DNA from: a virus
DNA length: 64,000 bases
IMG/VR virus record: IMGVR_UViG_3300033143_003083
Location: 1-64,000 of that record
Strand: one strand, 5' to 3'
Shown here: piece by piece, positions 8,904 through 28,357 of the stretch
Layout of the letters: each line of letters starts with the position of its first letter
Numbering within the stretch: the stretch's first letter is position 1
The notes under the pieces: model-generated
The model's database searches: none
Told to the model about the DNA's origin: nothing
The model's input: only the letters and a program-made list of their open reading frames with translations
Made by a program: the position numbers and the translations under genes

Positions 8904-8906
8904 TCC

Positions 8907-8912: not shown

Positions 8913-8939
8913 CTCTATATACAAAATCGGAGTATTCAG

Positions 8940-10730
8940 TTGAAATTAATAGAAGTTTTTGCAGCAAAAGATGAAACCCTCACAGAAGGACTCAAATTTG
9001 GCAGAAAAGAAATTGCACTTGTTAACAGGGAAGCAAAAAATGTGAATGTGGGTATCGAATGGGAATACCATGTAAATTCTGAACTTCTTGAAAAAGACAA
9101 AGAAGATTTTGATGAACATGACATTAACGTTCTTGCTGATGAAAAAATGCATAGAGATATGGCACGTCAGAAAGTTGAATGGACTGACAATTTCATTAAT
9201 GATTACATGGAAGCATATCAGGTGGAGAGTAACACCACTGGTCTTAATTACATAAAACGTGTCAGCAGTGAATTTTCAAAACACGTTGATACTATTGTGA
9301 CATATGAAGACGATTTCGAAAGAATAATGGGTACTTATGAATCTGGTGATGATTTAGACGAAGAAGACAAAACTGTTATCAGAGAATACCTATATAGTGC
9401 TGTGACAGTAGGTGACAAGTTCAATACTATACAAGTAACCATGAATAACATTAACAGGGACAAAGAAGAAGAATTATCACAATGGATTCATCTTATCTCT
9501 GGTGGTAGCAGGAACATAGTCACTGAGTTAGATGAAGCTACTGACAACATGAATGAATTTCTGCAATGGGTAAAACGTTTAACAACTCTTGAAAAAACAC
9601 GTAGTGGTTTCACTAACTATGACGGACTAATTCAAAAATATGATCAAAAAGGTAAAGGATTCTTTGTTGAATTTTATACATCACAACAATGGTTAGAACA
9701 AGTACAAGTATTGGTAGGTGATGATGACACATGGACATTCAAAGTTCGCGCCCATTACACTATGGATGCAGTCGAAGCATGGGATGATCAATTAGCAACT
9801 AACCCAGAATTGTTATTAGGTTATGATCCAAAAAATCTTGATGAAACTCCTTTCTGGTCACAAGCAGAACAAGAACTCTCTGGCGAAGGTGATCCAATTC
9901 ACTCACAAGATTATGTTGATTACATTACCGAGATATTACAGAAACGTAATCCTTGGAATATTGATTTTAATGATATTGAACGTGTATTAATTGAAGCTGG
10001 TGTGACTGACGGTGTAGAAACTGTCTCTAAGCCTCTGAAGCTGAATGACTCATTAGCATTAAACGAACAGATGCTGACGCATATACGGGATGTTGGTTGG
10101 ACAGACGAAGGTACAGGACTTCATGTTAACGTTTCGTTAAGGGGTATGAACTTCAAACGAGATAACTTTAATCCTGCTAAATTAATATTACTGCTTAACC
10201 CTAAAATGTTACAGGAATTCTTCCAATTACGTGGGTATGTCGGTGATCAATTCGATGGACTCACTGATATGAAATTAAGTGATATGGCATGGGGTGTTGC
10301 CAAGTATGGTAGGGGGTCACTCATAGAACATTTCGAGAAGTCAGCATTTGACCACGACAAACACAGACAAGTTAATTTTAATAATTTCCATACTAAATCT
10401 TTTGATATGGATCTCAGTCTTGACAGAATTGAATTTCGTTATATTGGTGGTAAGGACTACGAACATCGTCAAAAAACGATTGAATGGCATATTTACCGCA
10501 TGGTTTACCTTACTATGGTCGCTTTTAACGAAGGATTTGCCGAAAAAGAGTATCTTAAGGAAATGCAAAAGGTATTAGACCGCGAATCTAAAGAGAAATT
10601 TGCTGGTATGTCGTTTTTTGAACTGGTTGAATGGTGGAAACGTAATCCTGATGGATCTTATAATGATTTGAACGTACATGCAACGATGGGTAAACGTAAT
10701 ACACTACATAAGAAGATAAGTGGAAGATGA
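8940..10730 (+). CDS. Capsid-targeted candidate cargo, amidoligase-like
   Basis: 596 residues with a TTG start at 8940 behind GGAG (spacing 7); no in-frame ATG gives the shared N-terminus. It begins MKLIEVFAAK and has LTE followed by G at residues 14-17, fitting a gp21-type prohead protease site (L/I-x-E before a small residue). The core shows NVGIEWEYHV (about 35-45), GTGLHVNVSLRG (about 388-400) and RIEFRYIGGKDYEHR (about 500-515). This order of a GxExE-type strand, HVN and ExR is that of the COOH-NH2 amidoligase branch of the glutamine-synthetase fold. Substrate unknown. First gene of a plus-strand operon with ATGA overlaps. Confidence 0.5.
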   Translation: MKLIEVFAAKDETLTEGLKFGRKEIALVNREAKNVNVGIEWEYHVNSELLEKDKEDFDEHDINVLADEKMHRDMARQKVEWTDNFINDYMEAYQVESNTTGLNYIKRVSSEFSKHVDTIVTYEDDFERIMGTYESGDDLDEEDKTVIREYLYSAVTVGDKFNTIQVTMNNINRDKEEELSQWIHLISGGSRNIVTELDEATDNMNEFLQWVKRLTTLEKTRSGFTNYDGLIQKYDQKGKGFFVEFYTSQQWLEQVQVLVGDDDTWTFKVRAHYTMDAVEAWDDQLATNPELLLGYDPKNLDETPFWSQAEQELSGEGDPIHSQDYVDYITEILQKRNPWNIDFNDIERVLIEAGVTDGVETVSKPLKLNDSLALNEQMLTHIRDVGWTDEGTGLHVNVSLRGMNFKRDNFNPAKLILLLNPKMLQEFFQLRGYVGDQFDGLTDMKLSDMAWGVAKYGRGSLIEHFEKSAFDHDKHRQVNFNNFHTKSFDMDLSLDRIEFRYIGGKDYEHRQKTIEWHIYRMVYLTMVAFNEGFAEKEYLKEMQKVLDRESKEKFAGMSFFELVEWWKRNPDGSYNDLNVHATMGKRNTLHKKISGR

Positions 10731-12244
10731 AGTTAACTAAATTATTTGAGTATTACGAACAAATTTTGCTTGAAGGTAAGATTGAACTGATTGCCAAGAA
10801 ACAAGGTAAGAAGATTAAGAAAGCATTATATAAAGACAAACCCAGAATGAATACATTAGGGCATTTTCATCATGCAGGTGGTAAATGGGATGGCAAGAGT
10901 AACATCAAAGACATATCTGACCAAGATGTTATTGGGGTACTCACATTATTTCAATCTAAAATTCATAAGAAGTATGTTCAATGGTTAGCTAATCGTTATG
11001 CCAACTATGAATTTAAACTTGAAGATTGGTCACAGGTACGAAGCGAATTAAAAGAATTTGATAAAGTTAAATCCAGATTAGCTATTAAAGATATCAATCA
11101 ATACAAGTCATTAACATCATTGTATTCAGCATTAGATGAATTCAAAGACAAAGATGTTAGGTCTAATACACAAAAAAGCAAAGATGAACGTAAGGCATTG
11201 TTTGATGATGGTGAAGCAGAATTGTTCTATAAAGATTCCCTTATAACCATTACAGTTCCTAAAACAGCGAACGCCGCATGTGAATTAGGTAAGGGTACTC
11301 GCTGGTGTACATCTGCCAGAACTCATAACGCATTTCATCAATACAGCAGACAAGGTGATCTGTATATTGTTGATACCAAGAAAGAAAAATTTCAATTGCA
11401 TTTTGAATCAGGTCAATTTATGGATGAAGAAGATGTTGAACTTGATTTCCCTGAATTATTTGAAAAATATCCGACAATGTATAAGTCATTAAAAAAAGCA
11501 TTTGGTAAAGATAAAGTTAAACAATTTTTGACACCTAAACAGGTATTAGAAGAAGATGGTTATAAGGGTTTAGTTGATGTACTCAAAAAACAAGAATTAA
11601 AGTTTGATGGTGACAACAATCTTATTATAACTGAACACCCAAATGTAGAAGATTTGATTGATGATTATGGTGATGATAGTGCCAAATGGGTAATAAAGGT
11701 ATTACAGGGAGAGGAAGAAGCATTTGGTAGTGATTATGTTCCTACTAGCAGTGATTTTGATTACCTCCTGTCTGCCGAACAAGAAAAAATATTAAACAAG
11801 TATGCTGCTGAAAAATATCCAGATGAATGGGAAGATGATGAAGATTGGTACGATGTATTAGAATCTAGTGGTGATGAAACACTGGACGAACTACGACAAC
11901 TTTACTGGCAAGCATCAGAAAGTGGTGCTCAATCTGAAATGTCTAAATTATTAGAGTCATCCCTAGAAGATTTTCATGAAGAATTTGAACTTGATCCTGA
12001 TGGACTTGAGTGGGACAAAAAATATAATGTTATCCTTCCTAAAGCTACCCTGATAGATTATGTTGAGAATCCCAAAAAATACGATTTACATATACCCACA
12101 ATAGATGCTTTGGTTGAGGCACATGGGGACACATTCTATTTTGATATAAGCATATCTTTGGTACATCCTCGTTATGGATATACTGATATGGATGATGAAT
12201 ATTTCAAATCTGAAGCAGACGCATTACTTAAGGATATCAAATGA
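10727..12244 (+). CDS. Capsid-targeted candidate cargo, WCTS-family paralogue 1
   Basis: 505 residues, with an ATGA overlap to the previous gene. The N-terminus MKLTKLFEYYEQILLEGK carries both LFE and an LLE-G cleavage-like site. About residues 80-130 contain IHKKYVQWLANRY and a charged helical region. About 180-240 contain a distinctive GKGTRWCTSART motif followed by an aromatic/basic beta segment. The first 250 residues are closely paralogous to the 534-residue protein at 20360; the acidic C-terminal halves diverge. The GTRWCT domain is familiar from phage proteins of unknown function, and I make no enzymatic claim. Confidence 0.6.
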   Translation: MKLTKLFEYYEQILLEGKIELIAKKQGKKIKKALYKDKPRMNTLGHFHHAGGKWDGKSNIKDISDQDVIGVLTLFQSKIHKKYVQWLANRYANYEFKLEDWSQVRSELKEFDKVKSRLAIKDINQYKSLTSLYSALDEFKDKDVRSNTQKSKDERKALFDDGEAELFYKDSLITITVPKTANAACELGKGTRWCTSARTHNAFHQYSRQGDLYIVDTKKEKFQLHFESGQFMDEEDVELDFPELFEKYPTMYKSLKKAFGKDKVKQFLTPKQVLEEDGYKGLVDVLKKQELKFDGDNNLIITEHPNVEDLIDDYGDDSAKWVIKVLQGEEEAFGSDYVPTSSDFDYLLSAEQEKILNKYAAEKYPDEWEDDEDWYDVLESSGDETLDELRQLYWQASESGAQSEMSKLLESSLEDFHEEFELDPDGLEWDKKYNVILPKATLIDYVENPKKYDLHIPTIDALVEAHGDTFYFDISISLVHPRYGYTDMDDEYFKSEADALLKDIK

Positions 12245-12831
12245 AACTTGACATACTATTCGAACGGACTATCTCTGATATCCGGTTAAAGAAAATTATC
12301 ACCAAGGGATTCATTGATAACCTTGATAATTACACAAATCATTTTCTTGATTATTTCAAAGTTTATAATAATGAATATGCAGATATGGATGATGGTGACA
12401 TCAAAGAATTACCTGCATATAAAGAATACTTACAGGATGAATTACGTAATAAGTTTGATGATGCATTCGAAGAAATTTTTAATAACATTCATCAGGGTAA
12501 GATCACATTGTATCGTGACATGACAGTGCGTAAGGATTGGGTGGAGCATCTTGCAAAACATCCTAACTCACGCATAGGTAAGTACTGGTCATGGGACGAA
12601 GCAGCAGCAGACGCTCACTGGGGTACGTTTGGTGACAAGGTGGCATCCATTGTCATTGAGATACCAGAAAAGTTTATTGATTGGGAAGAAACGTTTCAGG
12701 CGAATCTTCAGATTCAGGAAGAAAAAGAAATTACACTATTCAAGAATACTCCGATTAAGATTAAGGCAATCCTGAACAAAGGTAAACCTGAAGATATATC
12801 TTCAATTGAAAATAACAGGTACAAAGCATAA
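12241..12831 (+). CDS. Capsid-targeted ADP-ribosyltransferase-like protein (Alt analogue)
   Basis: 196 residues starting MKLDILFERT. The C-terminal half carries an ADP-ribosyltransferase-like signature: ITLYRDM (Arg of motif 1, about residue 97), RIGKYWSWDEAAADAHWG (the aromatic-Ser motif with a following Ala-rich helix, about 118-135) and EEKEITLF near residue 165 (candidate ExE motif). T4 Alt is an injected head-borne ADP-ribosyltransferase beginning MELITELFDE, so targeting peptide and fold agree. The target protein is unknown. ATGA-coupled to its neighbours. Confidence 0.55.
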   Translation: MKLDILFERTISDIRLKKIITKGFIDNLDNYTNHFLDYFKVYNNEYADMDDGDIKELPAYKEYLQDELRNKFDDAFEEIFNNIHQGKITLYRDMTVRKDWVEHLAKHPNSRIGKYWSWDEAAADAHWGTFGDKVASIVIEIPEKFIDWEETFQANLQIQEEKEITLFKNTPIKIKAILNKGKPEDISSIENNRYKA

Positions 12832-13235
12832 TGAAACTCAATACATTATTTGAGAGCGAACTGAATGATAATAAGGATTATGTCCGTAAAATTTATGCAG
12901 CAGGACACCCGAACCCAATAGGTCGTGGTGTAATATTCGTCAAAGGAACTCAAGAAGAAAATGGGTATATCGTTGTTGAATTGAAACCGATGGTTAACTT
13001 TGTACACATAACCGAAATACGTGTTCTTGAGGGTAAGTACAAAGAAGGTTATGGTGATACTGTAATGAAGATACTTACTAAAGAAGCAGACAAGATGAAT
13101 GTCACCTTGCATTTAGCAGCAGTTCCATTGAAGGGCGAAGGTAAGACAATACCAAAAGGTAAGTTGAAATCATTCTATAAGAAGCATGGGTTCGTGTCTG
13201 AAGGTGGTGATGTTATGCGTAGAGAACCTAAATGA
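12831..13235 (+). CDS. Capsid-targeted GNAT acetyltransferase-like protein 1
   Basis: 134 residues beginning MKLNTLFES, with an E-S cleavage-like bond at 8-9. The body fits a compact GNAT fold: strand ITEIRVLEGKYKEGYGD with a degenerate acetyl-CoA loop, helix TVMKILTKEADKM, then a terminal LKSFYKKHGFVSEGG, the usual last helix-strand of N-acetyltransferases. It overlaps the next gene by four bases. Substrate unknown; protein or small-molecule acetylation in the newly infected cell is a plausible role. Confidence 0.6.
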   Translation: MKLNTLFESELNDNKDYVRKIYAAGHPNPIGRGVIFVKGTQEENGYIVVELKPMVNFVHITEIRVLEGKYKEGYGDTVMKILTKEADKMNVTLHLAAVPLKGEGKTIPKGKLKSFYKKHGFVSEGGDVMRREPK

Positions 13236-13597
13236 AACTCAATCTATTATTTGAGAATGTTGAATACCAAGCATTCAGTAAGTACATCACAAAGAAGTAC
13301 AATGTAAGAACATTCTTCATCAATCAATCAGGGAATGACATTGAACTCAACAGCATAATCATAGCAAAAGAAAATCAGAAAGAAGGTATCGGGTCTGATG
13401 TGATGAAAGAACTCATTAAGTTTGCTGATAGTAAGGGTAAGAGAATCATATTGGGTGTTGGTGTAAAGGATAGCATTCATGGTACTACGTCCAGATCGCG
13501 TCTGGTTAAGTTCTATAAGCGGTTCGGATTCAAAGAGAACAAAGGGCGTAAGAAAGATTTCAGTGTATCTGCCGGTATGATACGCAATCCAAAGTAA
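13232..13597 (+). CDS. Capsid-targeted GNAT acetyltransferase-like protein 2
   Basis: 121 residues beginning MKLNLLFENV. It has a clear GNAT core: a strand ending IIIAKENQ, the Q/R-x-x-G-x-G-like loop QKEGIGSDVM, helix KELIKFADSKG, and C-terminal LVKFYKRFGFKENKG. Related in layout to the previous gene, so probably an old tandem duplication. Last gene of the first cargo operon; its stop abuts the stop of the convergent gene at 13598 with no terminator hairpin between them. Confidence 0.65.
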   Translation: MKLNLLFENVEYQAFSKYITKKYNVRTFFINQSGNDIELNSIIIAKENQKEGIGSDVMKELIKFADSKGKRIILGVGVKDSIHGTTSRSRLVKFYKRFGFKENKGRKKDFSVSAGMIRNPK

Positions 13598-13852
13598 TTA
13601 TAATTTATTCATCAGCATAAGACTTTCACCCAGTTCAGATATCTTTATATGATTACGTTCAGAGCATAGTTGTTGGGTGATAACCTGTGTTGAATCACCT
13701 AACGTCATTCCAATATCATCAGCAGTAACATAAACGATATACCCTGACTCCAAATGACTATACCATAACAAAACATTAGTTTTATAAGAATTACCAAGGT
13801 CAAACGCTTTGTTCAGATCAACAGTACTCCAAAAATCTAAGAAGTCTTTCAT
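13598..13852 (-). CDS. Family H small protein (wing-like C-terminus)
   Basis: 84 residues from the ATG at 13852 (MKDFLDFW), which overlaps the upstream TGA as ATGA. A further ATG 12 nt upstream lies inside the conserved WWML coding tail of the previous gene and is less likely. The C-terminus reads HIKISELGESLMLMNKL, the same ISExGxxLxxxxKL ending as other family H members, which resembles the last helix and wing of a mini winged-helix. Function unknown. Confidence 0.6.
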   Translation of the reverse strand: MKDFLDFWSTVDLNKAFDLGNSYKTNVLLWYSHLESGYIVYVTADDIGMTLGDSTQVITQQLCSERNHIKISELGESLMLMNKL

Positions 13853-14085
13853 AACATCCACCACTCATGCAAGTGTTCATTCTCAACAATGTAATTCCAT
13901 GCGTCTTCATACGTAGTATAACTTCTGCGGCCTGATGGTGGTATCTTATGTTCCCTTATGAATTCAACTAAAATAGCTGCCCCACCATGATAATTTAGTT
14001 TACTAAAAACATTAGGGAACAGGTGCTCATTAAGTTTGGGGTATTGCCTCTCCACTTTTTCATGAAAATCTATACTCTTATTCAC
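13849..14085 (-). CDS. Family W small protein (WWML tail)
   Basis: 78 residues, with a probable GTG start at 14085 in a GTGA overlap with the preceding stop. Pattern: N-terminal helix, QYPKLNEHLF, an aliphatic middle, then a terminal YTTYEDAWNYIVENEHLHEWWML. Member of a family of small acidic proteins repeated through 13.8-16.8 kb. Function unknown. Confidence 0.65.
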   Translation of the reverse strand: MNKSIDFHEKVERQYPKLNEHLFPNVFSKLNYHGGAAILVEFIREHKIPPSGRRSYTTYEDAWNYIVENEHLHEWWML

Positions 14086-14318
14086 AACATCCACCAGATA
14101 TGTTTGTCTTCGTTGTCACAGATGTATTTCCATATAATTTCATACGTTAAATTATCTTTGGTTGGACAATTGCATTGGTGATTCACAAAATCAAGTACTA
14201 ACGACAAGTTTTCAAAGGTATCATCTAATACATAAGAGTACCCTGCAAAAATGTGGTCATGCAATTCAGGGTAATAATCATACACTAATGATTTAAAATG
14301 GTCTAAATCTTTAATCAA
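14082..14318 (-). CDS. Family W small protein, TTG start
   Basis: 78 residues with a TTG start at 14318 behind AGGTAAG. It shares YYPELHDHIF near residue 17 and ends IWKYICDNEDKHIWWML. Its stop region TGGTGGATGTTGTGA also contains the next gene's start. Function unknown. Confidence 0.6.
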   Translation of the reverse strand: MIKDLDHFKSLVYDYYPELHDHIFAGYSYVLDDTFENLSLVLDFVNHQCNCPTKDNLTYEIIWKYICDNEDKHIWWML

Positions 14319-14319
14319 C

Positions 14320-14484
14320 TTACTTACCTGTTATTTTCTCATACTGGTCAACAACATCAAAGAATAAATCATATGCGGCATCACCGGACGTGTCAGCAGC
14401 TTCACGTGCTTCTTTCGAACTCCCCCATTGATCTACCCATTCCATAGTTTTATCAAACCATTCAATTTTTTCTTCGTCTGTCAT
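14320..14484 (-). CDS. Small acidic hypothetical protein, 54 aa
   Basis: Begins MTDEEKIEWFDKTMEWV and ends YEKITGK with TAA at 14320. Predicted all-helical and acidic. An ATAGGTG element lies just upstream (GGTG, spacing about 6). It fills the otherwise empty 170-bp gap between two family genes in the same direction. Confidence 0.55.
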   Translation of the reverse strand: MTDEEKIEWFDKTMEWVDQWGSSKEAREAADTSGDAAYDLFFDVVDQYEKITGK

Positions 14485-14491
14485 ATATCAC

Positions 14492-14722
14492 CTATAATTC
14501 ATCAAATAATTGTATACTGAGTTCAGCTTCAACCCTGTCATGAATTTCTTGTGCAGTACCTGCAATCGTCTTAAAGATCATTGTATTTTTTGCATATGAG
14601 TACACAGTACCCCCAACCCCACGAGTAAATTCAATGATGTTATAATTGCTGCCACCCACACTGTCAGTAATAATATACTTTTTGTGCTGGTCATCTATAA
14701 TTATTGGTTTGCCCAGACTCAT
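14492..14722 (-). CDS. Small hypothetical protein, pairs with its upstream neighbour
   Basis: 76 residues; shares KxYxxxDSxxGxxYxIxE (KKYIITDSVGGSNYNIIEF) with the upstream gene at 14722-14982, so the two look like tandem paralogues. It ends with an acidic SIQLFDEL. One-base stop/start overlap (TAATG). Function unknown. Confidence 0.6.
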   Translation of the reverse strand: MSLGKPIIIDDQHKKYIITDSVGGSNYNIIEFTRGVGGTVYSYAKNTMIFKTIAGTAQEIHDRVEAELSIQLFDEL

Positions 14723-14982
14723 TATAATTTTCTCATTAGACGTTTAGCATAAGTTTTTTCTATTTCATCATGTAGGAATTGTGCTGAATCATTACATTGT
14801 CTCATATAATTACCTTTGAGATCATATGCAACCCAATAATTATAAGGTAATATTAAAGGTGTTATCTTAAAATTACCTTTATACTCACGTTCGACAATTT
14901 CATAATCATGACCGGCAAAACTATCTGTTACCTTATGATAGATTTTGCCCTTACGATGTTTAATTCGTCTGCCTAACATCAT
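14722..14982 (-). CDS. Small basic hypothetical protein, tandem paralogue
   Basis: 86 residues from the ATG at 14982 (MMLGRRIKHRKG), which overlaps the upstream TGA; a longer frame from 15042 would run deep into that gene. It contains KIYHKVTDSFAGHDYEIVE, aligning with the downstream gene. Basic, with a helical C-terminus. Function unknown. Confidence 0.55.
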   Translation of the reverse strand: MMLGRRIKHRKGKIYHKVTDSFAGHDYEIVEREYKGNFKITPLILPYNYWVAYDLKGNYMRQCNDSAQFLHDEIEKTYAKRLMRKL

Positions 14983-15209
14983 AACTCCAATGTGATAAAA
15001 ACTGATGTGGGGGCAAATATTACCTTGCCACAATTTGACCATGTTGCTAATTCTCTTACGACTGATACCGGACGGTCTTCAGCAACATTCTTCCTGAAAT
15101 GATTACAGTATGATAACCATATGTCCCACACACAAAATGTAGCAGACATACTGGAATCACTGACTATACCACACATACCCAGACCATTAACTGAGATTGA
15201 ATTTCTCAT
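14979..15209 (-). CDS. Small hypothetical protein
   Basis: 76 residues from the ATG at 15209, chosen because GAGAGGAAGGA lies directly upstream. A TTG at 15224 is an alternative. Contains GLGMCGIVSDS and a CVWDIWLSYCNHF helix with several cysteines. It overlaps the end of the 51-residue gene by 23 bases. Not recognised. Confidence 0.5.
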   Translation of the reverse strand: MRNSISVNGLGMCGIVSDSSMSATFCVWDIWLSYCNHFRKNVAEDRPVSVVRELATWSNCGKVIFAPTSVFITLEL

Positions 15210-15342
15210 TATCCTTCCTCTCAATTTCGTCTAAACGGTCAGCAATACACTTCATCAGTACCGATTTGGTCACAGGGTTCTGAGTATAGTGGTAATCGCG
15301 GAATAAGTCACCTAATGTTGCTGGATTTGCGTCCTTACTCAT
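15187..15342 (-). CDS. Small hypothetical protein, 51 aa
   Basis: Starts MSKDANPATLGDLFRDY in an ATGA overlap with the previous stop, and ends NEKFNLS with TAA at 15187. Helical with charged ends. Its 3' end supplies the Shine-Dalgarno of the next gene. Function unknown. Confidence 0.55.
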   Translation of the reverse strand: MSKDANPATLGDLFRDYHYTQNPVTKSVLMKCIADRLDEIERKDNEKFNLS

Positions 15343-15683
15343 AACTCACCCCATTCTTCATAAGCATCATAAAAAGCATATGCAAGTTCTGTAAATTTGA
15401 ATTCAACAAAATAAACGGTTCTTTTAGGTTTAAGTTTTCTCCCACCGACACACTCAAATCTACCCTTAGTAGTTCTTTCATAGACATGAACATCAGACAA
15501 ACACGAACCTGTACTAATATGAATAATTTCATCTGTGTGATTCATTTTAACGTTGTTTTCAAAACCATTTGCATTAGTTTTCGTCATATAGATTCTGAAC
15601 TTATTAGGTTCAATGACTGTGACACTCTTAGATGCATCACGGTCATGCATGAATTCACATAATTTACCAAGATAATTACTCAT
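15339..15683 (-). CDS. Small hypothetical protein in the W array
   Basis: 114 residues from the ATG at 15683 (MSNYLGKLCEF), directly at the TGGTGGATGTTATGA junction of the preceding family W gene. Beta-rich middle (KFRIYMTK, CLSDVHVYERTTKGRF) and C-terminal aromatic helix AYAFYDAYEEWGEL. Not a W-family member itself. Function unknown. Confidence 0.55.
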   Translation of the reverse strand: MSNYLGKLCEFMHDRDASKSVTVIEPNKFRIYMTKTNANGFENNVKMNHTDEIIHISTGSCLSDVHVYERTTKGRFECVGGRKLKPKRTVYFVEFKFTELAYAFYDAYEEWGEL

Positions 15684-15904
15684 AACATCCACCATTCATG
15701 TAGATCTTCATTGTCATTAATATACTGCCAGATAGTTTCGGGTGTGGTAAGATGCATCATATTGTTTTTCTTCAAAAATATTCTGAGTGCTGTGAATTCT
15801 AATACATTATTATCAAATATATGATTATAAAGTTCAGGATAATAGCGGCGCATATTAATCATTATATCACCGACACCAATAACATGTTTACCCTTATATC
15901 TCAT
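15680..15904 (-). CDS. Family W small protein
   Basis: 74 residues (MRYKGKHVIGV start). RRYYPELYNHIF, then ALRIFLKKNN, then TIWQYINDNEDLHEWWML. The YYPELY...ALRIFLKKNN block is nearly identical in the gene at 16140, so the two are recent paralogues. Confidence 0.65.
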   Translation of the reverse strand: MRYKGKHVIGVGDIMINMRRYYPELYNHIFDNNVLEFTALRIFLKKNNMMHLTTPETIWQYINDNEDLHEWWML

Positions 15905-16143
15905 AACATCCACCATGCATGTAAGTCTTCGTTATCTCTAATATATTGCCATATCTCAACATACTCGTTACCTGAATGTAGTGAGATACCTGATTTTAAT
16001 CTTGTCTTCTTCATAAAGATTGTAAGTGATGTATATGGGGTACGACCTTCACCATATACATATATATAAAGTTCTGGATAATAATGTTTCATATTATTCA
16101 GTAAAGAAGTCATGGTAAGAACGGAGCCATCATCAAATGTCAT
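15901..16143 (-). CDS. Family W small protein
   Basis: 80 residues from the ATG at 16143 (MTFDDGSVL), in an ATGA overlap. KHYYPELYIYVY near residue 20, SLTIFMKKT in the middle, ends IRDNEDLHAWWML. Same architecture as its neighbours. Confidence 0.65.
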   Translation of the reverse strand: MTFDDGSVLTMTSLLNNMKHYYPELYIYVYGEGRTPYTSLTIFMKKTRLKSGISLHSGNEYVEIWQYIRDNEDLHAWWML

Positions 16144-16361
16144 AACATCCACCAATCGTGTAATTCTCTGTTGCACCTGATATGATCCCATATAGCTTCA
16201 ACTGAGGTAAGATGTATTATATTGTTTTTCTTCAAAAAAATTCTGAGTGCAGTATGAGGCAGATCATCATTATCGAATATATGAGTATAAAGTTCAGGAT
16301 AAAATGATTTTATACTATCCATTAACCCTCTTAGATGTATCACATGTTCGCCATTACTCAT
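16140..16361 (-). CDS. Family W small protein
   Basis: 73 residues from the ATG at 16361 (MSNGEHVIHL). Contains KSFYPELYTHIF, ALRIFLKKNNIIHLTS and a final HIRCNRELHDWWML. Closest paralogue is the gene at 15680. Confidence 0.65.
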   Translation of the reverse strand: MSNGEHVIHLRGLMDSIKSFYPELYTHIFDNDDLPHTALRIFLKKNNIIHLTSVEAIWDHIRCNRELHDWWML

Positions 16362-16591
16362 AACATCCACCAATCATGCTTATCTTTATTCACAACAATG
16401 AAATCCCAGATTTCTTGGTAATCCCATACCGACACCTTACCATCACCATGACTACTGATAAAGATGATAAGCGAGTCGTAAGGGTCATTACGACCACCAA
16501 ATATGTATTTGTAAAGTTCTGGGTAATAATATTTCATACTATGTTTCAGTTCATCCATAATACGGACTGAAGATGATGGTATTCTACTCAT
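16358..16591 (-). CDS. Family W small protein
   Basis: 77 residues from the ATG at 16591 (MSRIPSSSV). KYYYPELYKYIF near residue 20, aliphatic LIIFISSHG, ends EIWDFIVVNKDKHDWWML. Junctions on both sides carry TGGTGGATGTTATGA. Confidence 0.65.
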   Translation of the reverse strand: MSRIPSSSVRIMDELKHSMKYYYPELYKYIFGGRNDPYDSLIIFISSHGDGKVSVWDYQEIWDFIVVNKDKHDWWML

Positions 16592-16821
16592 AACATCCAC
16601 CAATCATGCATATCTTCCTTTGCAACAATGTACGCCCATATTTCATTATAAGACAACCTATTAATATCATATGATATCTTATTCATAAAGATATCAAGTG
16701 CTTCATATGAGGCAGCATACCCAAAGAACACATGAGCATGAAGGTCAGGATAATAACGTGCCATATTATGCTTCAGGGCATTCACTGAGAAAATAGGCGC
16801 AGGATGCTTCGTATCATTCAT
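16588..16821 (-). CDS. Family W small protein, first of the array
   Basis: 77 residues, MNDTKHPAPIF start placed directly after the stop of the upstream gene. ARYYPDLHAHVF, ALDIFMNKI, EIWAYIVAKEDMHDWWML. Function unknown. Confidence 0.65.
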   Translation of the reverse strand: MNDTKHPAPIFSVNALKHNMARYYPDLHAHVFFGYAASYEALDIFMNKISYDINRLSYNEIWAYIVAKEDMHDWWML

Positions 16822-17193: not shown

Positions 17194-17209
17194 CAGATTA
17201 CTCCTAAGT

Positions 17210-17284
17210 TGGAAGGTGTGGGGGGATTCGAACCCCCATGCAACGGATTTGCAATCCGCGACCTAGCCGTTCGGTCACACACCT
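17210..17284 (-). tRNA. tRNA-Cys (GCA)
   Basis: Full cloverleaf of 75 nt with encoded CCA: 7-bp acceptor AGGTGTG/CACACCT, anticodon loop TTGCAAA giving anticodon GCA, T-arm GGGGG-TTCGAAT-CCCCC, and discriminator U73, which is the usual identity base for tRNA-Cys. Its 5' end overlaps the stop of the upstream membrane-protein gene by 2 nt, so it is probably cut out of a longer transcript. Confidence 0.95.
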
Positions 17285-17474
17285 ATAATTTTATAATAAT
17301 TAGTAACATAATAAAAAATGACATTCCGAATATTAATGATCCAATCATTGCTAATGTTGTCATACTATTATCATTTTTGATTAGTTTGTATACTACCGCA
17401 AGTCCAATTCCATAGACAGTACCACTGAATAATCCAGCTAATACCATTGATTGAAATATTATTAATAAAATCAT
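17283..17474 (-). CDS. Small membrane protein, two TM helices
   Basis: 63 residues from the ATG at 17474 (MILLIIFQSM), chosen because GGAG lies 7 nt upstream; the longer frame would need a TTG. Hydrophobic segments at about 1-26 and 38-61 with a short charged loop KLIKNDNS. Stop TAG overlaps the tRNA-Cys 5' end. Function unknown. Confidence 0.6.
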   Translation of the reverse strand: MILLIIFQSMVLAGLFSGTVYGIGLAVVYKLIKNDNSMTTLAMIGSLIFGMSFFIMLLIIIKL

Positions 17475-17489
17475 ACTATTCTCCAATAA

Positions 17490-17840
17490 TTATAATAATT
17501 TAGCAATACTGTCAGAGAACACTTTCATTGCTTTCAATACAACATCACGTTCTTCTTCGTCTGGCATTGCTGCTGTTGGGTCTTCCATGAATTCACGCAC
17601 ACCCTGTGCAATTGTAGTCAGTGGTGAATCGAATAATGATTTTGTCTCAGCAGCACTTATTGCTTCATTGAAGCATTTAACGCGGGTAGCTGCCACACTT
17701 AATTTATGATGCACTTCAGGTAAATTATCAGTCCAATTACCCGTTACGTGTGATGCTGCATCTTGTACTTTAATAACAAGAGCATCACGTTCAGCAGCAG
17801 CCTCATTACGCATTTTTGTAAGCAAAGTTAAAGTTGTCAT
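17490..17840 (-). CDS. Helical small protein, first gene after an early promoter
   Basis: 116 residues, MTTLTLLTKMRNEAAAERDA start behind GGGAGAA. Predicted mostly alpha-helical with possible coiled coil at 8-30 and 47-65. Encoded directly downstream of the consensus sigma70 promoter at 17867-17895, so likely expressed immediately after infection. Not recognised. Confidence 0.6.
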   Translation of the reverse strand: MTTLTLLTKMRNEAAAERDALVIKVQDAASHVTGNWTDNLPEVHHKLSVAATRVKCFNEAISAAETKSLFDSPLTTIAQGVREFMEDPTAAMPDEEERDVVLKAMKVFSDSIAKLL

Positions 17841-17866
17841 ATTTGTTCTCCCAGTTGATGAAGGGA

Positions 17867-17895
17867 ATTATAGATTGAAAACTTCCCTGTGTCAA
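17867..17895 (-). promoter_or_regulatory. Early sigma70-type promoter
   Basis: Minus strand: TTGACA, 17-nt spacer, TATAAT, both hexamers perfect. The spacer end shares TTTTCAATC with the promoters at 28358 and 35306. It drives the leftward operon beginning at 17840. Confidence 0.85.
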
Positions 17896-17918
17896 ATCTT
17901 ATTTCAATTGATATTAAC

Positions 17919-17924
17919 TAAATA
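17919..17924 (+). promoter_or_regulatory. Late box TAAATA, 5 nt before ATG
   Basis: Plus strand ACTAAATACCACTATG: the box ends 5 nt before the ATG at 17930 and no Shine-Dalgarno is present, implying a leaderless late mRNA for cargo operon 2. Confidence 0.45.
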
Positions 17925-17929
17925 CCACT

Positions 17930-18640
17930 ATGAATTTACTACAATTATTCGAAAATGTCCAAAATGTCAATCTGGATCAGCTATACCGGAAATTTAACCA
18001 GAAATACTTCAATGGTCAGTTACCAGTGGTCAAAACAAAATGGTCTAATAAGCGTAGGTCAATGGGGGCAGTAGTTGCCAACAGAGTCAAAGCAACTGGG
18101 GTAATATCAATCAAACATCTGGAAATTTCCAAGCATCTTGATATTGACGAAGAAAAATTGAGTGCATTAATGTTACATGAAATGATTCATGTGTATGTGT
18201 TATTCGTATTACAACTGAGTGAACGTAGTGGGGGTCACGGTACAGAGTTCCATAAGAAACGGGGAGAACTTAATCGTAAGACTCCATTTGTGATTCCTGC
18301 ATCTGAAGATTATAATGAGTTTGAGGTATCACCCCATATAAAAATTAAACCTACTGTGATCATTCTCAGAACAGGTAGTGGTGGTACATGGGTACATGCC
18401 ATATCAGAAAAAGGATTCCAGAAAGATTTCGAAAAGATTATTGGACGATTTGTTCAAGAACATGAATATGAAGTTTTTGTGTCTGCTGCAAGTAATATTA
18501 CTAAGATACCTGTTGCACGTGTGCTCACAAAAAAAGGTATGCCGTATTATAGAATGAATGATAAAGAAATACAGTTAATCAGGGACGGTATGACCAAGAT
18601 GATTGTTAAAATAGACAAGAACGGAAATATATCATCATGA
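17930..18640 (+). CDS. Capsid-targeted SprT-like zinc metalloprotease
   Basis: 236 residues beginning MNLLQLFENV. Residues 17-35 (LYRKFNQKYFNGQLPVVK) match the SprT-type N-terminal entry. LMLHEMIHVYV (about 82-92) is the HExxH zinc motif, and GGHGTEFHKK about 20 residues later supplies the third zinc ligand, as in SprT/Spartan proteases. The C-terminal 90 residues are beta-rich and unassigned. The targeting-like N-terminus suggests packaging and injection. First gene of the second cargo operon. Confidence 0.7.
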   Translation: MNLLQLFENVQNVNLDQLYRKFNQKYFNGQLPVVKTKWSNKRRSMGAVVANRVKATGVISIKHLEISKHLDIDEEKLSALMLHEMIHVYVLFVLQLSERSGGHGTEFHKKRGELNRKTPFVIPASEDYNEFEVSPHIKIKPTVIILRTGSGGTWVHAISEKGFQKDFEKIIGRFVQEHEYEVFVSAASNITKIPVARVLTKKGMPYYRMNDKEIQLIRDGMTKMIVKIDKNGNISS

Positions 18641-19032
18641 AACTTAGTCATATAAAACAACCGGATCTGTTCGGTATTCAGACAAAACCTATGTCAATAG
18701 TAGGGGTATATGACCGGATGATCCTGAGAGTCATCGAACCAACGAATAAGAGCGCATTTAAGCAAGATTGCACATGTCATAAGCTGAGTATCAACTATAT
18801 CGTTAAACACGCCAAACCTTCTGACAGACTCGTTATGGTGGGGGTAGGTAATACTGTTACTCATAGCTTCGTGGTAAATATAAGTGGGAAGATAATTGCT
18901 GATACTAATATAAGTAATGATCCGACTTATGATGGAAAGACTTATACAGTGGGTAAGGATAAGTTTAAGCACATGTGGAATAAAACAGCACGTGATATCG
19001 CCAGAGATATTAAAGAGATATTAGTTAAATGA
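18637..19032 (+). CDS. Capsid-operon protein, unknown (possible Cys/His hydrolase)
   Basis: 131 residues starting MKLSHIKQPDLFG, a divergent form of the shared N-terminus. CTCHKLSINYIVKHA (about 46-60) followed by THSFVVNISGKIIADTN (about 76-92) gives a Cys, then His, then Asp order compatible with a papain- or transglutaminase-like fold, but the match is weak. ATGA overlaps on both sides. Confidence 0.4.
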   Translation: MKLSHIKQPDLFGIQTKPMSIVGVYDRMILRVIEPTNKSAFKQDCTCHKLSINYIVKHAKPSDRLVMVGVGNTVTHSFVVNISGKIIADTNISNDPTYDGKTYTVGKDKFKHMWNKTARDIARDIKEILVK

Positions 19033-19448
19033 AGTTAGAACAATTATTAGAAAGTGCAAGTAAAAATATGATTAAGGCTGCGGCAAACGTCACTGAAAAA
19101 TTATTAAAGATTGGTGGTGAGCGTGTTGTCAGGCCAGAAGAAGATGAAGACATCGTATTAATGTCCCAGAAAGGAAAGTTGTGGAAGCATAAGGCAACTA
19201 AATTGGATGGTGTACCATATAACGACTGCCACCGTGTTACCGCAAATGTATGTCAGGTAAATAAAAGATTTAGCGCAATAACGGGTTTTGCATTATCAAA
19301 GGATGGGTTATGGAGGCCACATTCTTTTATGTTTGATACTGTTGATAAATCAATACTAGAACCTACTCCAATCATACGTGTTAAATATTGGGGGGTCTTA
19401 ATGAGTGGTAAAGATGCTGAACGATTTATAAAGAGTAACGCCAGATGA
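19029..19448 (+). CDS. Capsid-targeted unknown, conserved CHR...HSF motif
   Basis: 139 residues, MKLEQLLESASKN start with an E-S cleavage-like bond. Body: NDCHRVTANVC (about 64-74), GFALSKDGLWRPHSFMFD (about 85-102), then EPTPIIRVKYWGV (about 110-122). The C-H-...-H-D arrangement with a terminal Tyr-Trp/Phe-Gly strand recalls papain-like amidases of unknown substrate seen in bacteria and phages. No specific function claimed. Confidence 0.45.
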   Translation: MKLEQLLESASKNMIKAAANVTEKLLKIGGERVVRPEEDEDIVLMSQKGKLWKHKATKLDGVPYNDCHRVTANVCQVNKRFSAITGFALSKDGLWRPHSFMFDTVDKSILEPTPIIRVKYWGVLMSGKDAERFIKSNAR

Positions 19449-19765
19449 AGTTAGAACAATTATTTGAATCCCGCCAGAAACAATACGGCAGACCATTACC
19501 GGAAACTGGATATCAATATAAGAAGGTAGAAATTTTCAGAGCACTTGATGCTAATGAAGATTACTTCCTGCCAGAAGATTATGTGACCCGTCTGAAGAAG
19601 TTTGCAGTGGGTCATGCTGATCATAACGTTGTTGTACTGGAAACCCCTCAGAAAGTTATCAGGGCAATTGTGAATGCGTCTGATGTATATGAAGCAACGA
19701 ATGCAGGTGAATACTTTTATGATGGTAAGAAAGTAAAGGGACGAGTAATTTATGAAACTGATTAA
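19445..19765 (+). CDS. Capsid-targeted ART-fold-like small protein
   Basis: 106 residues starting MKLEQLFES. The segment VEIFRALDA (about 28-36), PEDYVTRLKKFAVGHAD (about 43-59), VIRAIVNASDVYEATNAGE (about 71-89) and YFYDGKKVKG follows the order of small ADP-ribosyltransferase-like domains found at the ends of phage head-associated proteins. The catalytic Glu is not certain. It overlaps the next gene by 14 nt. Confidence 0.4.
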   Translation: MKLEQLFESRQKQYGRPLPETGYQYKKVEIFRALDANEDYFLPEDYVTRLKKFAVGHADHNVVVLETPQKVIRAIVNASDVYEATNAGEYFYDGKKVKGRVIYETD

Positions 19766-20363
19766 CCTATTCGAAAGTGCAAGTAAAAATCGTGACATGA
19801 TTGTAATTGATGTACAACCATTCTATCACAACCATCACAAACATATCGTCCCAAGATTAATCGAACATGTGAATCAGATGACAGGTGATGTCTTATGGTT
19901 TCATAATGGTTGTAATGTGGGGATTGAAGATACGGTACATGAACAAAAAATGTACCTGCTTGAAAATGGAATGGACGAAGATAGATTAGACGAAATAACA
20001 TTTGTAGAAAAAGATTATGCATTTTTCAGAGGTTGGATGGATAATGGTATTGATGAAGATATTATTATTGCTGCTGGTAAATACATGTACAAGAATCGTA
20101 TTAATGACAGTCGTGATTTGGAAGTAGAAGATTTTGTGAAATTCTTACCCAGACCCGAACGTGATACATTCACAGACGAAGATGAATTATATAAAAATGA
20201 AGATGCATTACATTGGCCTGACATTGATATTAATAAATTGAAAAGATACAACAACGCTTACTTAGTAGGTGGTGGCAGGGATGAATGTCTTGAAGAAATG
20301 AGATTACTTCTGGAAATGGTTGGGATGAAGTACAAATTATTAAATGAGTTTATATACGGATGA
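19752..20363 (+). CDS. Capsid-targeted isochorismatase-like hydrolase
   Basis: 203 residues, MKLINLFESASKN start (the ESASKN tail is shared with the gene at 19029). MIVIDVQPF (Asp near residue 20), EITFVEKDYAFFRGW (Lys near 83) and YLVGGGRDECLEEM (Cys near 182) reproduce the Asp-Lys-Cys order of cysteine hydrolases of the isochorismatase/nicotinamidase superfamily. Substrate unknown. NAD-related compounds would be an attractive target beside ADP-ribosyltransferase-like cargo, but this is inference. Confidence 0.5.
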   Translation: MKLINLFESASKNRDMIVIDVQPFYHNHHKHIVPRLIEHVNQMTGDVLWFHNGCNVGIEDTVHEQKMYLLENGMDEDRLDEITFVEKDYAFFRGWMDNGIDEDIIIAAGKYMYKNRINDSRDLEVEDFVKFLPRPERDTFTDEDELYKNEDALHWPDIDINKLKRYNNAYLVGGGRDECLEEMRLLLEMVGMKYKLLNEFIYG

Positions 20364-21964
20364 AGTTAATACAATTATTAGAGCAACTTGAATGGTTATT
20401 TGAAAATCGTAAGATTGAACTGATTGCCAAGAAGCAAGGCCAGAAGATTATGAAAGCGCATGGACGTGATCGTACTCATGATCAGCGACTTATTGATTCT
20501 ATCTTTGGTATGACTCCCATTGTACATCGTGGTGGGGCGAAAGGTGGTGATGAATTAGTACAAGACAGTGCCAAGAAAATTATTGAATTCTTCCAAACTA
20601 AAATTCATAAGAAGTATGTCCAATGGATTGCCAACCGTTACATGAACCGAGAATTCCAATTGGAAGATTGGAAAACTATTAAGGACAACCTGAAAGATTT
20701 CGACCGTATTAAAAATAAATTATCTGTTAAAGATATCAATCAATACGACTCTATGGTTGCCTTGGATAACGCCATTGATTCCCTGAAAGATAAAGATGTC
20801 AGATCCAACAAACAAAAAGATAAAGAAGAACGTGCTCAATTATTCAAAGATAAAGAAGCTATCCTTTTCTATAAAGATTCTGATATTAAGATTGAGATAC
20901 CCAAGACTGAAGAAGCTGCATGTGTTCTGGGTAAGGGTACTCGCTGGTGTACATCAGCACGTAATCATAATCAGTTCGCCAATTATAACAGAGAGGGTGA
21001 TCTATATATCATCACCACCAAAGACGGCAAGAAGTTCCAATTCCATTTACATACTAAGCAGTTCATGGATGAAGCAGACCACGAAATTAAGATGACTGAA
21101 GTACTTGAAGAATATCCTTCAATCCTTAAAGCAATACCAAAACTTGTTGACAGTTTGTCTATGTTCGACAGGGCAAATATAAATGATATGAGTCAGAATG
21201 AAGTTGAAGGTATGATTAAGGAATGGATTGATGACGGATTACACCAGATTGATATGCATGATGATACCACTGTAGTCATTGAATCATACCAAGACTTAGA
21301 TAAATTCTTTCGCCAATATGATTTCATGGAATTGTCCAGTATGCTTTATTACATAGATGACCCAAGTACGTTAGAAGAAGAAATGGATACTGACAAAGCT
21401 AGAATGGACATTTCGAAATATCTTAATCAATCTATTATTGATTTGATACATGACCGATTATTAGATCAACCTCAACATGAATTATTTGATATTAACACCA
21501 ATGACAAGGTATTCAATGCATTAAACAATTATACAACACTATCAAGACAGATCCTGAATGAAATTGTTGAAAATATGACTGAGGAATCAGCAGAAGCAAT
21601 GGAAAAATATCTTAAGGATGGTATGGAAGGTGAAGGATTCGATCATGGTGTCATGGGATTCTTATTTGATACTGAACGTTCCCACTCAAGCGGATATTTA
21701 CTTGTAACTGACGAGGCCAGAAATTTTTACGACAGTACTTATTCGATGTCAATGGAGTTATACGAACTTGCAACTAACTTAACTGAAACTGGATGGGATG
21801 ATATATCAGATGATGAATTTGAACATGAAATGAGAAGATTCTTCGGTGAAGAATTTGACCATAACCCAGATTTAAAATCCCCAAGTGATTTCTATCATAC
21901 TCAGAACATGGATAATCTTGAAAATAGAATAGAAAGGGTTATGAAAGAGTGGAAAGGGTTATGA
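20360..21964 (+). CDS. Capsid-targeted candidate cargo, WCTS-family paralogue 2
   Basis: 534 residues, MKLIQLLEQLEWLFENRK start. Shares with the 505-residue protein at 10727 the segments KIELIAKKQGxKI, IHKKYVQWxANRY, VRSNxQKxKxER and LGKGTRWCTSARxHN with following GDLYI. The C-terminal half (from about residue 270) is acidic and unrelated in sequence. The duplication probably predates separation of the two cargo operons. Function unknown. Confidence 0.6.
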   Translation: MKLIQLLEQLEWLFENRKIELIAKKQGQKIMKAHGRDRTHDQRLIDSIFGMTPIVHRGGAKGGDELVQDSAKKIIEFFQTKIHKKYVQWIANRYMNREFQLEDWKTIKDNLKDFDRIKNKLSVKDINQYDSMVALDNAIDSLKDKDVRSNKQKDKEERAQLFKDKEAILFYKDSDIKIEIPKTEEAACVLGKGTRWCTSARNHNQFANYNREGDLYIITTKDGKKFQFHLHTKQFMDEADHEIKMTEVLEEYPSILKAIPKLVDSLSMFDRANINDMSQNEVEGMIKEWIDDGLHQIDMHDDTTVVIESYQDLDKFFRQYDFMELSSMLYYIDDPSTLEEEMDTDKARMDISKYLNQSIIDLIHDRLLDQPQHELFDINTNDKVFNALNNYTTLSRQILNEIVENMTEESAEAMEKYLKDGMEGEGFDHGVMGFLFDTERSHSSGYLLVTDEARNFYDSTYSMSMELYELATNLTETGWDDISDDEFEHEMRRFFGEEFDHNPDLKSPSDFYHTQNMDNLENRIERVMKEWKGL

Positions 21965-22437
21965 AATTATCCCAATTCTTACAAGAAGCTATAAGAAATC
22001 GTACCCTAATCAAAGGACAGCCCCTCTCAGGCGATTACTCCCATTACATACGTAGTATTACCGAGTTAAAAGACCTTCTTAAAGAGCATTACGGCAATTC
22101 TAAGATGACTTTAGACAATATTATCAAACTTTATGCTGAACATGACATGAAACTCACTGATAATTTGCTTGAATTTGAGTTTACCGTTAAGGAACTTGAT
22201 AAGTACAAGGAATGGAAGCGTACCAGAAACGATTCTAACCTTTCCACTGACGAATGGGATGAAATGAAAGCGGATATTAAGAAAAACGGTATACGGGATT
22301 ACGGTGTGCTTGGTATGTATCAGAAAAGGAACGGTGATGTCCTTACTTATATCGGTGAAGGTAATCACAGGTTGGCAATCGCAAAAGAACTTGGCATTAA
22401 GAAGATGAAAATGCGTCTTTTTTACGGGAAAGCCTAA
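21961..22437 (+). CDS. Capsid-targeted ParB/Srx-like domain protein
   Basis: 158 residues from the ATG at 21961 (MKLSQFLQEAIRN; L-Q-E before A fits the protease-site pattern). An in-frame ATG four codons upstream lies inside the previous gene. The C-terminal part has a KKNGIRDYGVLGMY strand-turn and YIGEGNHRLAIAKELGI, the GxGxHR motif of ParB/Srx-type nucleotide-binding domains. Possible nuclease or CTP/ATP-binding role; no second domain visible. Confidence 0.55.
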   Translation: MKLSQFLQEAIRNRTLIKGQPLSGDYSHYIRSITELKDLLKEHYGNSKMTLDNIIKLYAEHDMKLTDNLLEFEFTVKELDKYKEWKRTRNDSNLSTDEWDEMKADIKKNGIRDYGVLGMYQKRNGDVLTYIGEGNHRLAIAKELGIKKMKMRLFYGKA

Positions 22438-22788
22438 ATGAAACTTGATGAACTGTTTGCATGTCATGAAGAAGTCTTACTGGAAGGTAAGATTGAACGA
22501 ATAATTGAAAAACATCAGGTGGCAATCCTTAAAGCGTTCAGTAAAGAGTCACCGGATGTCGTTGGCAATGTAAATCATATAATGAATGAATTTAAAGAGA
22601 CACATCCAAAATATATCCAATGGATCACCAATCGTTACATCAAAGGTGAGTTCATAATGGAAAATTTACCTGAACTTAAGATGAAATTAGAAGAATTTGA
22701 TAAAATTAAAGACAAACTTCAGTCTAATGAGAAGGATATCAACCGTCACAAAACATTAGAGTCGTTTTATAAGGTTATCACAGGGTAA
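22438..22788 (+). CDS. Capsid-targeted truncated paralogue of the WCTS family
   Basis: 116 residues: MKLDELFACHEEVLLEGKIE start, then HPKYIQWITNRYIKGEF and LEEFDKIKDKL, aligning with roughly the first 150 residues of the proteins at 10727 and 20360. The GTRWCT domain and acidic half are absent. Last gene of the operon; its 3' end overlaps the convergent gene at 22778 by 11 bp, so the tail may have been lost by recombination there. Confidence 0.6.
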   Translation: MKLDELFACHEEVLLEGKIERIIEKHQVAILKAFSKESPDVVGNVNHIMNEFKETHPKYIQWITNRYIKGEFIMENLPELKMKLEEFDKIKDKLQSNEKDINRHKTLESFYKVITG

Positions 22789-23839: not shown

Positions 23840-23840
23840 T

Positions 23841-28330: not shown

Positions 28331-28357
28331 AATCTTTCTCCTAAGTTGATGTAGGGA

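What the first reader, a model, noticed from the sequence alone, without database searches (positions are those of the whole stretch)
8940..22788. Thirteen plus-strand proteins share a capsid-targeting-like N-terminus: a candidate injected effector arsenal
Genes at 8940, 10727, 12241, 12831, 13232, 17930, 18637, 19029, 19445, 19752, 20360, 21961 and 22438 encode unrelated bodies, yet nearly all begin M(K/N)LxxLFE or a near variant, many with a small residue after the Glu (LFES, LLES, LLEG, LQEA, LTEG). T4 Alt begins MELITELFDE and the T4 internal proteins begin MKTYQEFIAE; these peptides target proteins into the prohead and are cut by the gp21 protease at L/I-x-E. Here a tag on so many enzyme-like proteins, all late-promoted and co-oriented, suggests a large cargo delivered with the DNA. 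The gene at 18637 is the weakest member.
Basis: partly seen in the sequence, partly recalled or inferred. Interest (0 to 1): 0.92.

Follow-up and report, generated by a model that had tools for sequence, protein, structure and literature searches.

The report
Phage head-packed enzyme arsenal sharing tag
Thirteen neighbouring genes of an uncultured T4-like phage make mostly unrelated proteins that all begin with the same short peptide, almost certainly an address label that sends them into the phage head for delivery with the DNA, and related phages use the same scheme with their own versions of the label.

Summary
All 13 named plus-strand ORFs start M(K/N)L; none of the other 133 predicted ORFs of the 77,172-bp record does (Fisher 8e-19). 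Tag codons vary synonymously, so selection acts on the peptide. In 11 of 13 the leader contains a gp21-type site, hydrophobic-x-E before S/A/G/T/N (12% of other ORFs).

Comparison supports a T4-type capsid-targeting sequence. Homologues of the tagged proteins in other T4-like phages are tagged too, with phage-specific 'dialects': MKIxxLYESMITES (Alishewanella phage Slicko01), M(R/K)WxQLTES (Atu_ph07), MKIxxLLxEN or MKVKHITQYLFES (SCTP-2), MRAxEFLxE, MSILNE. The same site motif ends the capsid-protein and protease propeptides of relatives, and opens four scaffold proteins as LFE or LLE. Slicko01, SCTP-2, Atu_ph07 and three uncultured relatives encode the S77 prohead protease. Twelve of Atu_ph07's 18 tagged genes lie in a cluster rich in mass-spectrometry-detected virion proteins.

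Corrections: the bodies are not all unrelated (10727, 20360 and 22438 are paralogues; two GNATs); late promotion is only suggested; this fragment lacks the head module, so its protease, packaging and injection are inferred. Concept known from T4; scale, cargo and dialects are the new part.

The parts
8940..10730 (+). Tagged gene 1, 596 aa, amidoligase-like; 16-aa leader MKLIEVFAAKDETLTE|GLKFG (leader 8940-8987)
   Evidence: Homologues in L088, L090 and SCTP-2; E16-G17 invariant in alignment; hhalign 94.8% to the PF12224 amidoligase of G001
10727..12244 (+). Tagged gene 2, 505 aa, family with GKGTRWCTSA core; leader MKLTKLFEYYEQILLE|GKIEL
   Evidence: Tagged homologues in G001, L005, SCTP-2 and, by iterated profile, G003 and Atu_ph07; paralogue of 20360 and 22438
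12241..12831 (+). Tagged gene 3, 196 aa, MKLDILFER; function not established (LYR...EKE hints at ADP-ribosyltransferase)
   Evidence: No relative found; hhalign against Atu_ph07 YRG proteins negative; single-sequence model poor
12831..13235 (+). Tagged gene 4, 134 aa, GNAT-like, MKLNTLFE|S
   Evidence: Weak PF13508 match; similar to 13232 (E 4e-5)
13232..13597 (+). Tagged gene 5, 121 aa, GNAT, MKLNLLFE|N
   Evidence: PF13508 over cut-off; phrog_10691, 3925-position profile, E 8e-30; homologue Atu_ph07 49504 tagged MRLFQLLET
17930..18640 (+). Tagged gene 6, 236 aa, SprT-like metalloprotease, MNLLQLFE|N
   Evidence: PF10263 E 1e-12 from residue 16; homologues tagged MSIFNVLNLLLETS, MKTFKQLYLEAS, MKTFKELYLKEAS
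18637..19032 (+). Gene 7, 131 aa, MKLSHIKQPDLF: weakest tag, no h-x-E site; body unassigned
19029..19448 (+). Tagged gene 8, 139 aa, MKLEQLLE|S; body unassigned
19445..19765 (+). Tagged gene 9, 106 aa, MKLEQLFE|S; matches C-terminal part of phrog_2579
   Evidence: phrog_2579 'ParB C-terminal domain' E 4e-8
19752..20363 (+). Tagged gene 10, 203 aa, MKLINLFE|S; VIDVQP body, hydrolase-like by eye only
   Evidence: Homologue in G003 tagged MSMSILNEVEQVIDES; no Pfam or PDB match
20360..21964 (+). Tagged gene 11, 534 aa, paralogue of 10727; leader MKLIQLLEQLEWLFE|NRKIEL
21961..22437 (+). Tagged gene 12, 158 aa, MKLSQFLQE|A; ParB/Srx-like by weak match
   Evidence: Weak PHROG matches including phrog_26377 ParB-like, E 0.04
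22438..22788 (+). Tagged gene 13, 116 aa, short paralogue of the 10727 N-terminal region; MKLDELFACHEEVLLE|GKIER
8906..8913 (+). CTAAATAC upstream of run 1: possible late-promoter-like element (about 27 bp before the start codon)
   Evidence: total count in window not above chance
17918..17925 (+). CTAAATAC upstream of run 2 (4 bp before ATG): possible late-promoter-like element
62042..62338 (-). Candidate prohead core (gp68-like) protein of the same phage, MSFTDILE|SEQVELDLIVE|VTARRVRR
   Evidence: phrog_3503 'head scaffolding protein' E 9e-4, to which T4 gp68 also matches weakly; composition bias possible

Best explanation
The shared N-terminus is a prohead- (capsid-) targeting sequence of the T4 internal-protein type. 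Made with the virion parts, the 13 proteins are drawn through the tag into the scaffold core of the prohead. A gp21-type (S77) protease cuts after the Glu of an h-x-E|S/G/N/A site: after residue 8-9 in most, and after residue 15-16 in 8940, 10727, 20360 and 22438. The mature bodies stay in the DNA-filled head and are ejected with the genome, where they act at once on host proteins or defences. Shown: the tag, its protein-level conservation, its cleavage-site character, its replacement by other phage-specific tags on homologous bodies, and its likeness to the head propeptides and scaffold N-termini of relatives. Inferred: packaging, cleavage, ejection and the targets in the new host.
For: 13/13 against 0/133 ORFs carry M(K/N)L; 11/13 against 12% have an h-x-E|small site. 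Tag-blind motif search ranks the tag first. Leu3 uses four codons. 26 of 29 members of five tagged families in the window and its relatives have the site, against 11-20% of all ORFs in genomes with more than 100 genes. The leader/body junction E16-G17 of 8940 is kept in SCTP-2 although the leader has diverged. SprT homologues carry four different tags, including T4-like MKTFKQLYLEA. MCP cut sites are LTE|S, LSE|S, LKE|S, ISE|S; protease propeptides end IVE|S, ITE|S, VVE|G; scaffolds begin LKQLFE|S, LKSLFE|T, LKQLFE|N, FEKLLE|G. T4 controls ipI-III, Alt, gp22 and gp23 recovered. S77 protease in G001, SCTP-2, Slicko01, Atu_ph07, XacN1, G003, G004, T4. Tagged ART-PolyVal and amidoligase in relatives. 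A gp68-like core candidate in the same record. In T4 a 10-aa CTS suffices to package foreign proteins and is cut by gp21 (PMC10229621).
Against: No protease, MCP or gp22-type scaffold on this 77-kb fragment. No virion data for this phage; the Atu_ph07 per-gene list could not be read, so the link there is at cluster level only. The consensus differs from T4's MKTYQEF. 18637 lacks a site. XacN1, CM1, ACP17, nt-1, Cr30 and Microcystis phage Mel-JY01 have the protease but few or no tags, so protease presence alone does not predict an arsenal. The site motif occurs in 11-20% of all N-termini by chance.
Confidence: 0.82

Rival explanations
1. The tag is a head-targeting signal, but the proteins are prohead core or maturation helpers lost or kept in the head, not injected effectors.
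For: The tag resembles gp22-type scaffold N-termini; core proteins are cut at the same kind of site in T4.
Against: Bodies are enzyme-like (GNAT, SprT, amidoligase-like), vary between phages, and recall known injected or polyvalent domains (PMC5512222; PMC9503650).
Confidence: 0.09
2. The tag is a short binding motif for another phage or host protein (for instance hxxLF for a sliding clamp or a polymerase), unrelated to heads.
For: Short hydrophobic motifs of this look occur as clamp-binding peptides (own knowledge).
Against: Strictly N-terminal; coincides with h-x-E|small sites; swaps dialect between phages; the same motif is in MCP, protease and scaffold leaders.
Confidence: 0.04
3. The tag is a by-product of translation coupling (ATGA overlaps) or of recent duplication of gene starts.
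For: Most genes overlap by 1-4 bp, which forces A as the first base of codon 2; three genes are paralogues.
Against: L3, L6 and E8 are not forced; four Leu codons at position 3; overlapping minus-strand genes show no such start (0/133); homologues in distant phages keep a tag in another spelling.
Confidence: 0.02
4. Chance, or selection by the first reader.
For: The genes were listed because they matched; a loose pattern has a null mean of 3.2.
Against: Every gene of both runs matches, none outside; Fisher 8e-19.
Confidence: 0.01

Closest known systems
T4 internal proteins IpI, IpII, IpIII with 10-aa capsid targeting sequence
   Same: Unrelated small proteins sharing a short N-terminal peptide that ends in a gp21-type site; T-even phages carry variable sets (PMC12373910, PMC3012670). 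T4 sequences recovered here as controls, including the long leader of ipI (MKTFKEF...TITE|A), which resembles the 16-aa leaders of 8940 and 10727.
   Different: Another consensus (MKLxxLFES, not MKTYQEFIAEA), 13 genes in two runs, and enzyme-like bodies instead of restriction inhibitors.
T4 Alt (injected ADP-ribosyltransferase, MELITELFDE)
   Same: Tagged, injected enzyme; tag of similar look; tagged ART-PolyVal in Slicko01 and tagged proteins with YRG/YHG motifs in Atu_ph07.
   Different: No Alt homologue found in the window; the ART reading of 12241 failed its test.
Polyvalent proteins (DarB/DdrB, N4-type; PMC5512222)
   Same: Overlapping domain menu: GNAT, ParB-like, ART in relatives; 13232 matches a 3925-position profile.
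   Different: There the domains are fused in giant polypeptides; here each is a separate short protein with its own address tag.
Phage P1 DarB capsid targeting (PMC9024508)
   Same: N-terminal signal sufficient for head packaging.
   Different: P1 Dar proteins show no common N-terminal consensus and a different protease and scaffold system.

Membership tests
T4-type CTS-tagged internal proteins | Short N-terminal peptide common to otherwise unrelated proteins of one phage | tested here: met
   13/13 against 0/133 ORFs; about 10 body families
T4-type CTS-tagged internal proteins | Peptide ends at a gp21-type site (hydrophobic-x-E before a small residue) | tested here: met
   11 of 13 against 12% background; site only, cleavage not observed
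T4-type CTS-tagged internal proteins | T4 consensus MKTYQEFIxEA | tested here: not met
   Window dialect is MKLxxLFES; T4-like spelling seen in L106, L107, Cr30 and nt-1
T4-type CTS-tagged internal proteins | Phage encodes an S77 (gp21) prohead protease | tested here: inconclusive
   Not on the 77-kb fragment, which lacks the head module; present in G001, G003, G004, SCTP-2, Slicko01 and Atu_ph07
T4-type CTS-tagged internal proteins | T4-type scaffold core in the same phage | tested here: inconclusive
   gp68-like candidate at 62042-62338, E 9e-4, basic composition
T4-type CTS-tagged internal proteins | Proteins present and processed in virions | not testable with these tools
   Needs mass spectrometry; only cluster-level support from Atu_ph07
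T4-type CTS-tagged internal proteins | Injected into the host with DNA | not testable with these tools
   Inference from T4
T4-type CTS-tagged internal proteins | Late expression | tested here: inconclusive
   TATAAATA at chance level; CTAAATAC before both runs but not enriched overall
Polyvalent proteins | Several effector domains fused in one large polypeptide | tested here: not met
   Proteins are 106-596 aa, each with at most one recognised domain

The most novel reading that the evidence does not exclude
T4-like phages run a head-loading address system whose code differs by lineage: each phage's cargo tag matches its own scaffold and protease, and cargo families (SprT, GNAT, amidoligase-like, the GKGTRWCTSA family) move between phages and are re-tagged in the local dialect. 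Reading the dialect from a genome would then list its injected proteins. The window is one instance with 13 cargos.
Probability: 0.55. Interest if true: 0.8.

Novelty: new variant of a known kind. Interest (0 to 1): 0.66.

Why it matters
Injected phage proteins are the first phage proteins a cell meets and counter its defences, yet outside T-even phages they are mostly found one at a time by proteomics, or inferred from gene neighbourhood and fusions. If a lineage-specific tag marks them, whole injected arsenals, including enzymes such as amidoligase-like proteins, GNATs and SprT proteases, can be read from sequence, also in uncultured phages. It also raises a testable question: how a 9-16-residue signal co-evolves with scaffold and protease. 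I found no paper in the held library describing these tags outside T-even phages, but the library is incomplete.

Tried and rejected
Near-identity DNA search of the region in phage records: no match. PF03420 on the record: none, read as fragment, not absence. Relatives of 8940 by viral-contig scan: none, found later through the neighbouring tail gene. ART assignment of 12241: no homologue, hhalign negative, poor model; kept only as a hint. Fold of the 10727 family: mean pLDDT 55, Foldseek hits meaningless. PDB sequence searches empty. T4 late promoter TATAAATA: at chance. RaK2 'conserved N-terminal motif' is a tail-spike domain, unrelated. Atu_ph07, RaK2 and XacN1 per-protein mass-spectrometry lists are in supplements or figures not readable here; RsoM2USA is not in the collection. 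Iterated profile searches drift in later rounds, so only strong or single-pass matches are relied on for families.
Full report
Setting. The window is positions 1-64000 of a 77,172-bp viral record. Gene content is T4-like: tail tube and sheath-related genes at the left end, family-B DNA polymerase, SSB, clamp, RNR, RNA ligase. The head module is not on the fragment: PF03420 finds no protease. The closest named phages by polymerase are Alishewanella phages Slicko01/Slickus01 (37% identity) and jumbo myoviruses of the SCTP-2/XacN1 group.

Observation. The 13 ORFs were re-read. All start M(K/N)L; of the 133 other predicted ORFs none does. The two runs, 8940-13597 and 17930-22788, contain no untagged gene; the plus-strand baseplate-like gene 25385-26251 outside them is untagged. 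A tag-blind search over all N-terminal residue triplets ranks M.L..L.E first in this record. Overlapping ATGA junctions explain part of Lys2 but not Leu3, Leu6 or Glu8, and Leu3 is written TTA, CTT, CTC and CTG, so selection is on the peptide.

Anatomy. In 8 genes the tag is 8-9 residues, ending LFE, LLE or LQE before S, N, A or R. In 8940, 10727, 20360 and 22438 the first motif is followed by a second site (LTE|G, LLE|G, LFE|N, LLE|G) at residues 15-16, and similarity between paralogues, or to SCTP-2 homologues, begins just after it. T4 ipI has the same long-leader layout. 18637 has MKL but no site.

Cargo. Assigned by profile: SprT-like (17930, PF10263) and GNAT (13232, PF13508; 12831 weaker). 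8940 aligns with a G001 protein that is PF12224 amidoligase; that G001 gene is also tagged and also neighbours the 10727 homologue, as in the window. 19445 matches the end of phrog_2579. 21961 (ParB-like), 19752 (hydrolase-like), 18637/19029 and 12241 remain weak or unassigned.

Relatives. Iterated comparison over the gathered genomes shows that homologues of five cargo families are tagged in other phages but in other spellings. SprT: MNLLQLFEN (window), MSIFNVLNLLLETS (G003), MKTFKQLYLEAS (L106), MKTFKELYLKEAS (L107). 10727 family: MRAREFLIEY (G001), MRAVEFLFEY (L005), MKVKHITQYLFES (SCTP-2), MQYTDLIEA (Atu_ph07). 19752: MSMSILNEVEQVIDES (G003). 8940: MKINNLFEDKEDIITES (L090), INEGVKFG and IQEGVRYG (SCTP-2). 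26 of 29 family members have an h-x-E|small site in residues 4-26 against 11-20% of ORFs in the larger genomes. Tag counts per phage by dialect-specific pattern: SCTP-2 26 (400 of 440 kb read), Atu_ph07 18 (450 of 490 kb read), window 13 (12 by that pattern, plus 17930), Slicko01 9, G001 8, L005 6 of 11 ORFs, G004 6, G003 5; T4 6; Vibrio nt-1 3 (200 of 248 kb read); Cr30, CM1 and XacN1 2 each; ACP17 and Mel-JY01 none. The patterns were fitted by eye to each phage, so the counts are indicative. Large arsenals are therefore not universal, and the test is not trivially positive.

Link to head assembly. All relatives with a head module have the S77 protease. Their MCP propeptides end in LxE|S or similar just before the conserved mature start (G001 YLTE|SATVGAT, SCTP-2 MLKE|SATFGAT, Slicko01 VISE|STASG, T4 FLTE|AEIGG). 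Most protease propeptides end in h-x-E|small just before the conserved fold. Four gp22-type scaffolds open with xLFE or xLLE. Slicko01 tags (MKIDELYESMITES) repeat the ITE|S of its own protease propeptide and core protein. The window record has a gp68-like core candidate at 62042-62338 starting MSFTDILE|S, weak because of its basic composition.

Virion evidence, second hand. In Atu_ph07, 131 proteins were detected in virions and CDS 31-76 holds 29 of them, only two predicted structural (PMC6102473). Counting annotated CDS, CDS 43 and 53-63 of that cluster are tagged, 12 of the 18 tagged proteins found in the 450 kb read. The per-protein list could not be read, so this is consistent, not proof; ten of the twelve are related to one another.

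Known background. In T4 the 10-residue CTS packages foreign proteins into the core and is removed by gp21 (PMC10229621); T-even internal proteins are a diverse set sharing only the CTS (PMC3012670); Ip1-3 block GmrSD restriction systems (PMC12373910). ARTs and NAD-linked enzymes are thought to be packaged in many myoviruses, inferred from neighbourhood and fusions (PMC9503650). GNAT, ART and ParB domains are typical of polyvalent injected proteins (PMC5512222).

Conclusion. The most likely mechanism is tag-directed loading into the prohead core, cleavage after Glu by a gp21-type protease, and delivery with DNA. New relative to T4 are the scale, the enzyme cargo and the lineage-specific dialects. 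Late promotion is suggested by CTAAATAC before both runs, not shown. Packaging and injection need virion proteomics.

Noticed in passing
window 59470-61185 and 58206-59087, minus strand: DNA polymerase is split in two ORFs (571 and 293 aa) with small ORFs between; Slicko01 also has two polymerase ORFs next to each other.
   Followed up: partly
window 2227-5457, minus strand: 1076-aa protein whose last ~140 residues match a tail tube protein (phrog_4542), close to the ordinary tube gene at 6897-7394.
   Followed up: no
window 13849-16821, minus strand: Tandem small paralogues with a YYPELYxHIF-like core, lying between the two tagged runs.
   Followed up: no
window 22778-24788 and 27613-27843, minus strand: A second set of small tandem paralogues (MTDDxFxELIxxxLxDxxLxxVxYxAVDxDG).
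   Followed up: no
window 17836-17909 and 28326-28400: 86% identical ~75-bp repeat, each copy just upstream of a minus-strand gene start (17840 and 28330): possible shared promoter or operator.
   Followed up: no
window 52666-55149, minus strand: AAA (MoxR-like) ATPase next to a DUF2201 metallopeptidase/VWA protein.
   Followed up: no
Atu_ph07 MF403008 39484-49507 (L043): Tandem array of ten tagged, diverged paralogues with an invariant YRG motif, ADP-ribosyltransferase-like by eye; tag residues M1, W3, Q5, L6, E8 invariant in the eight aligned.
   Followed up: partly
Salicola phage SCTP-2 208780-214398: Tandem array of six tagged paralogues (MKINDLLKEN type) of unknown function.
   Followed up: no
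L005 5001-5444: Gene resembling a Dps/ferritin by eye, directly before a run of six tagged genes.
   Followed up: no
window 17210-17284, minus strand: tRNA-Cys gene in the gap between the two tagged runs.
   Followed up: no
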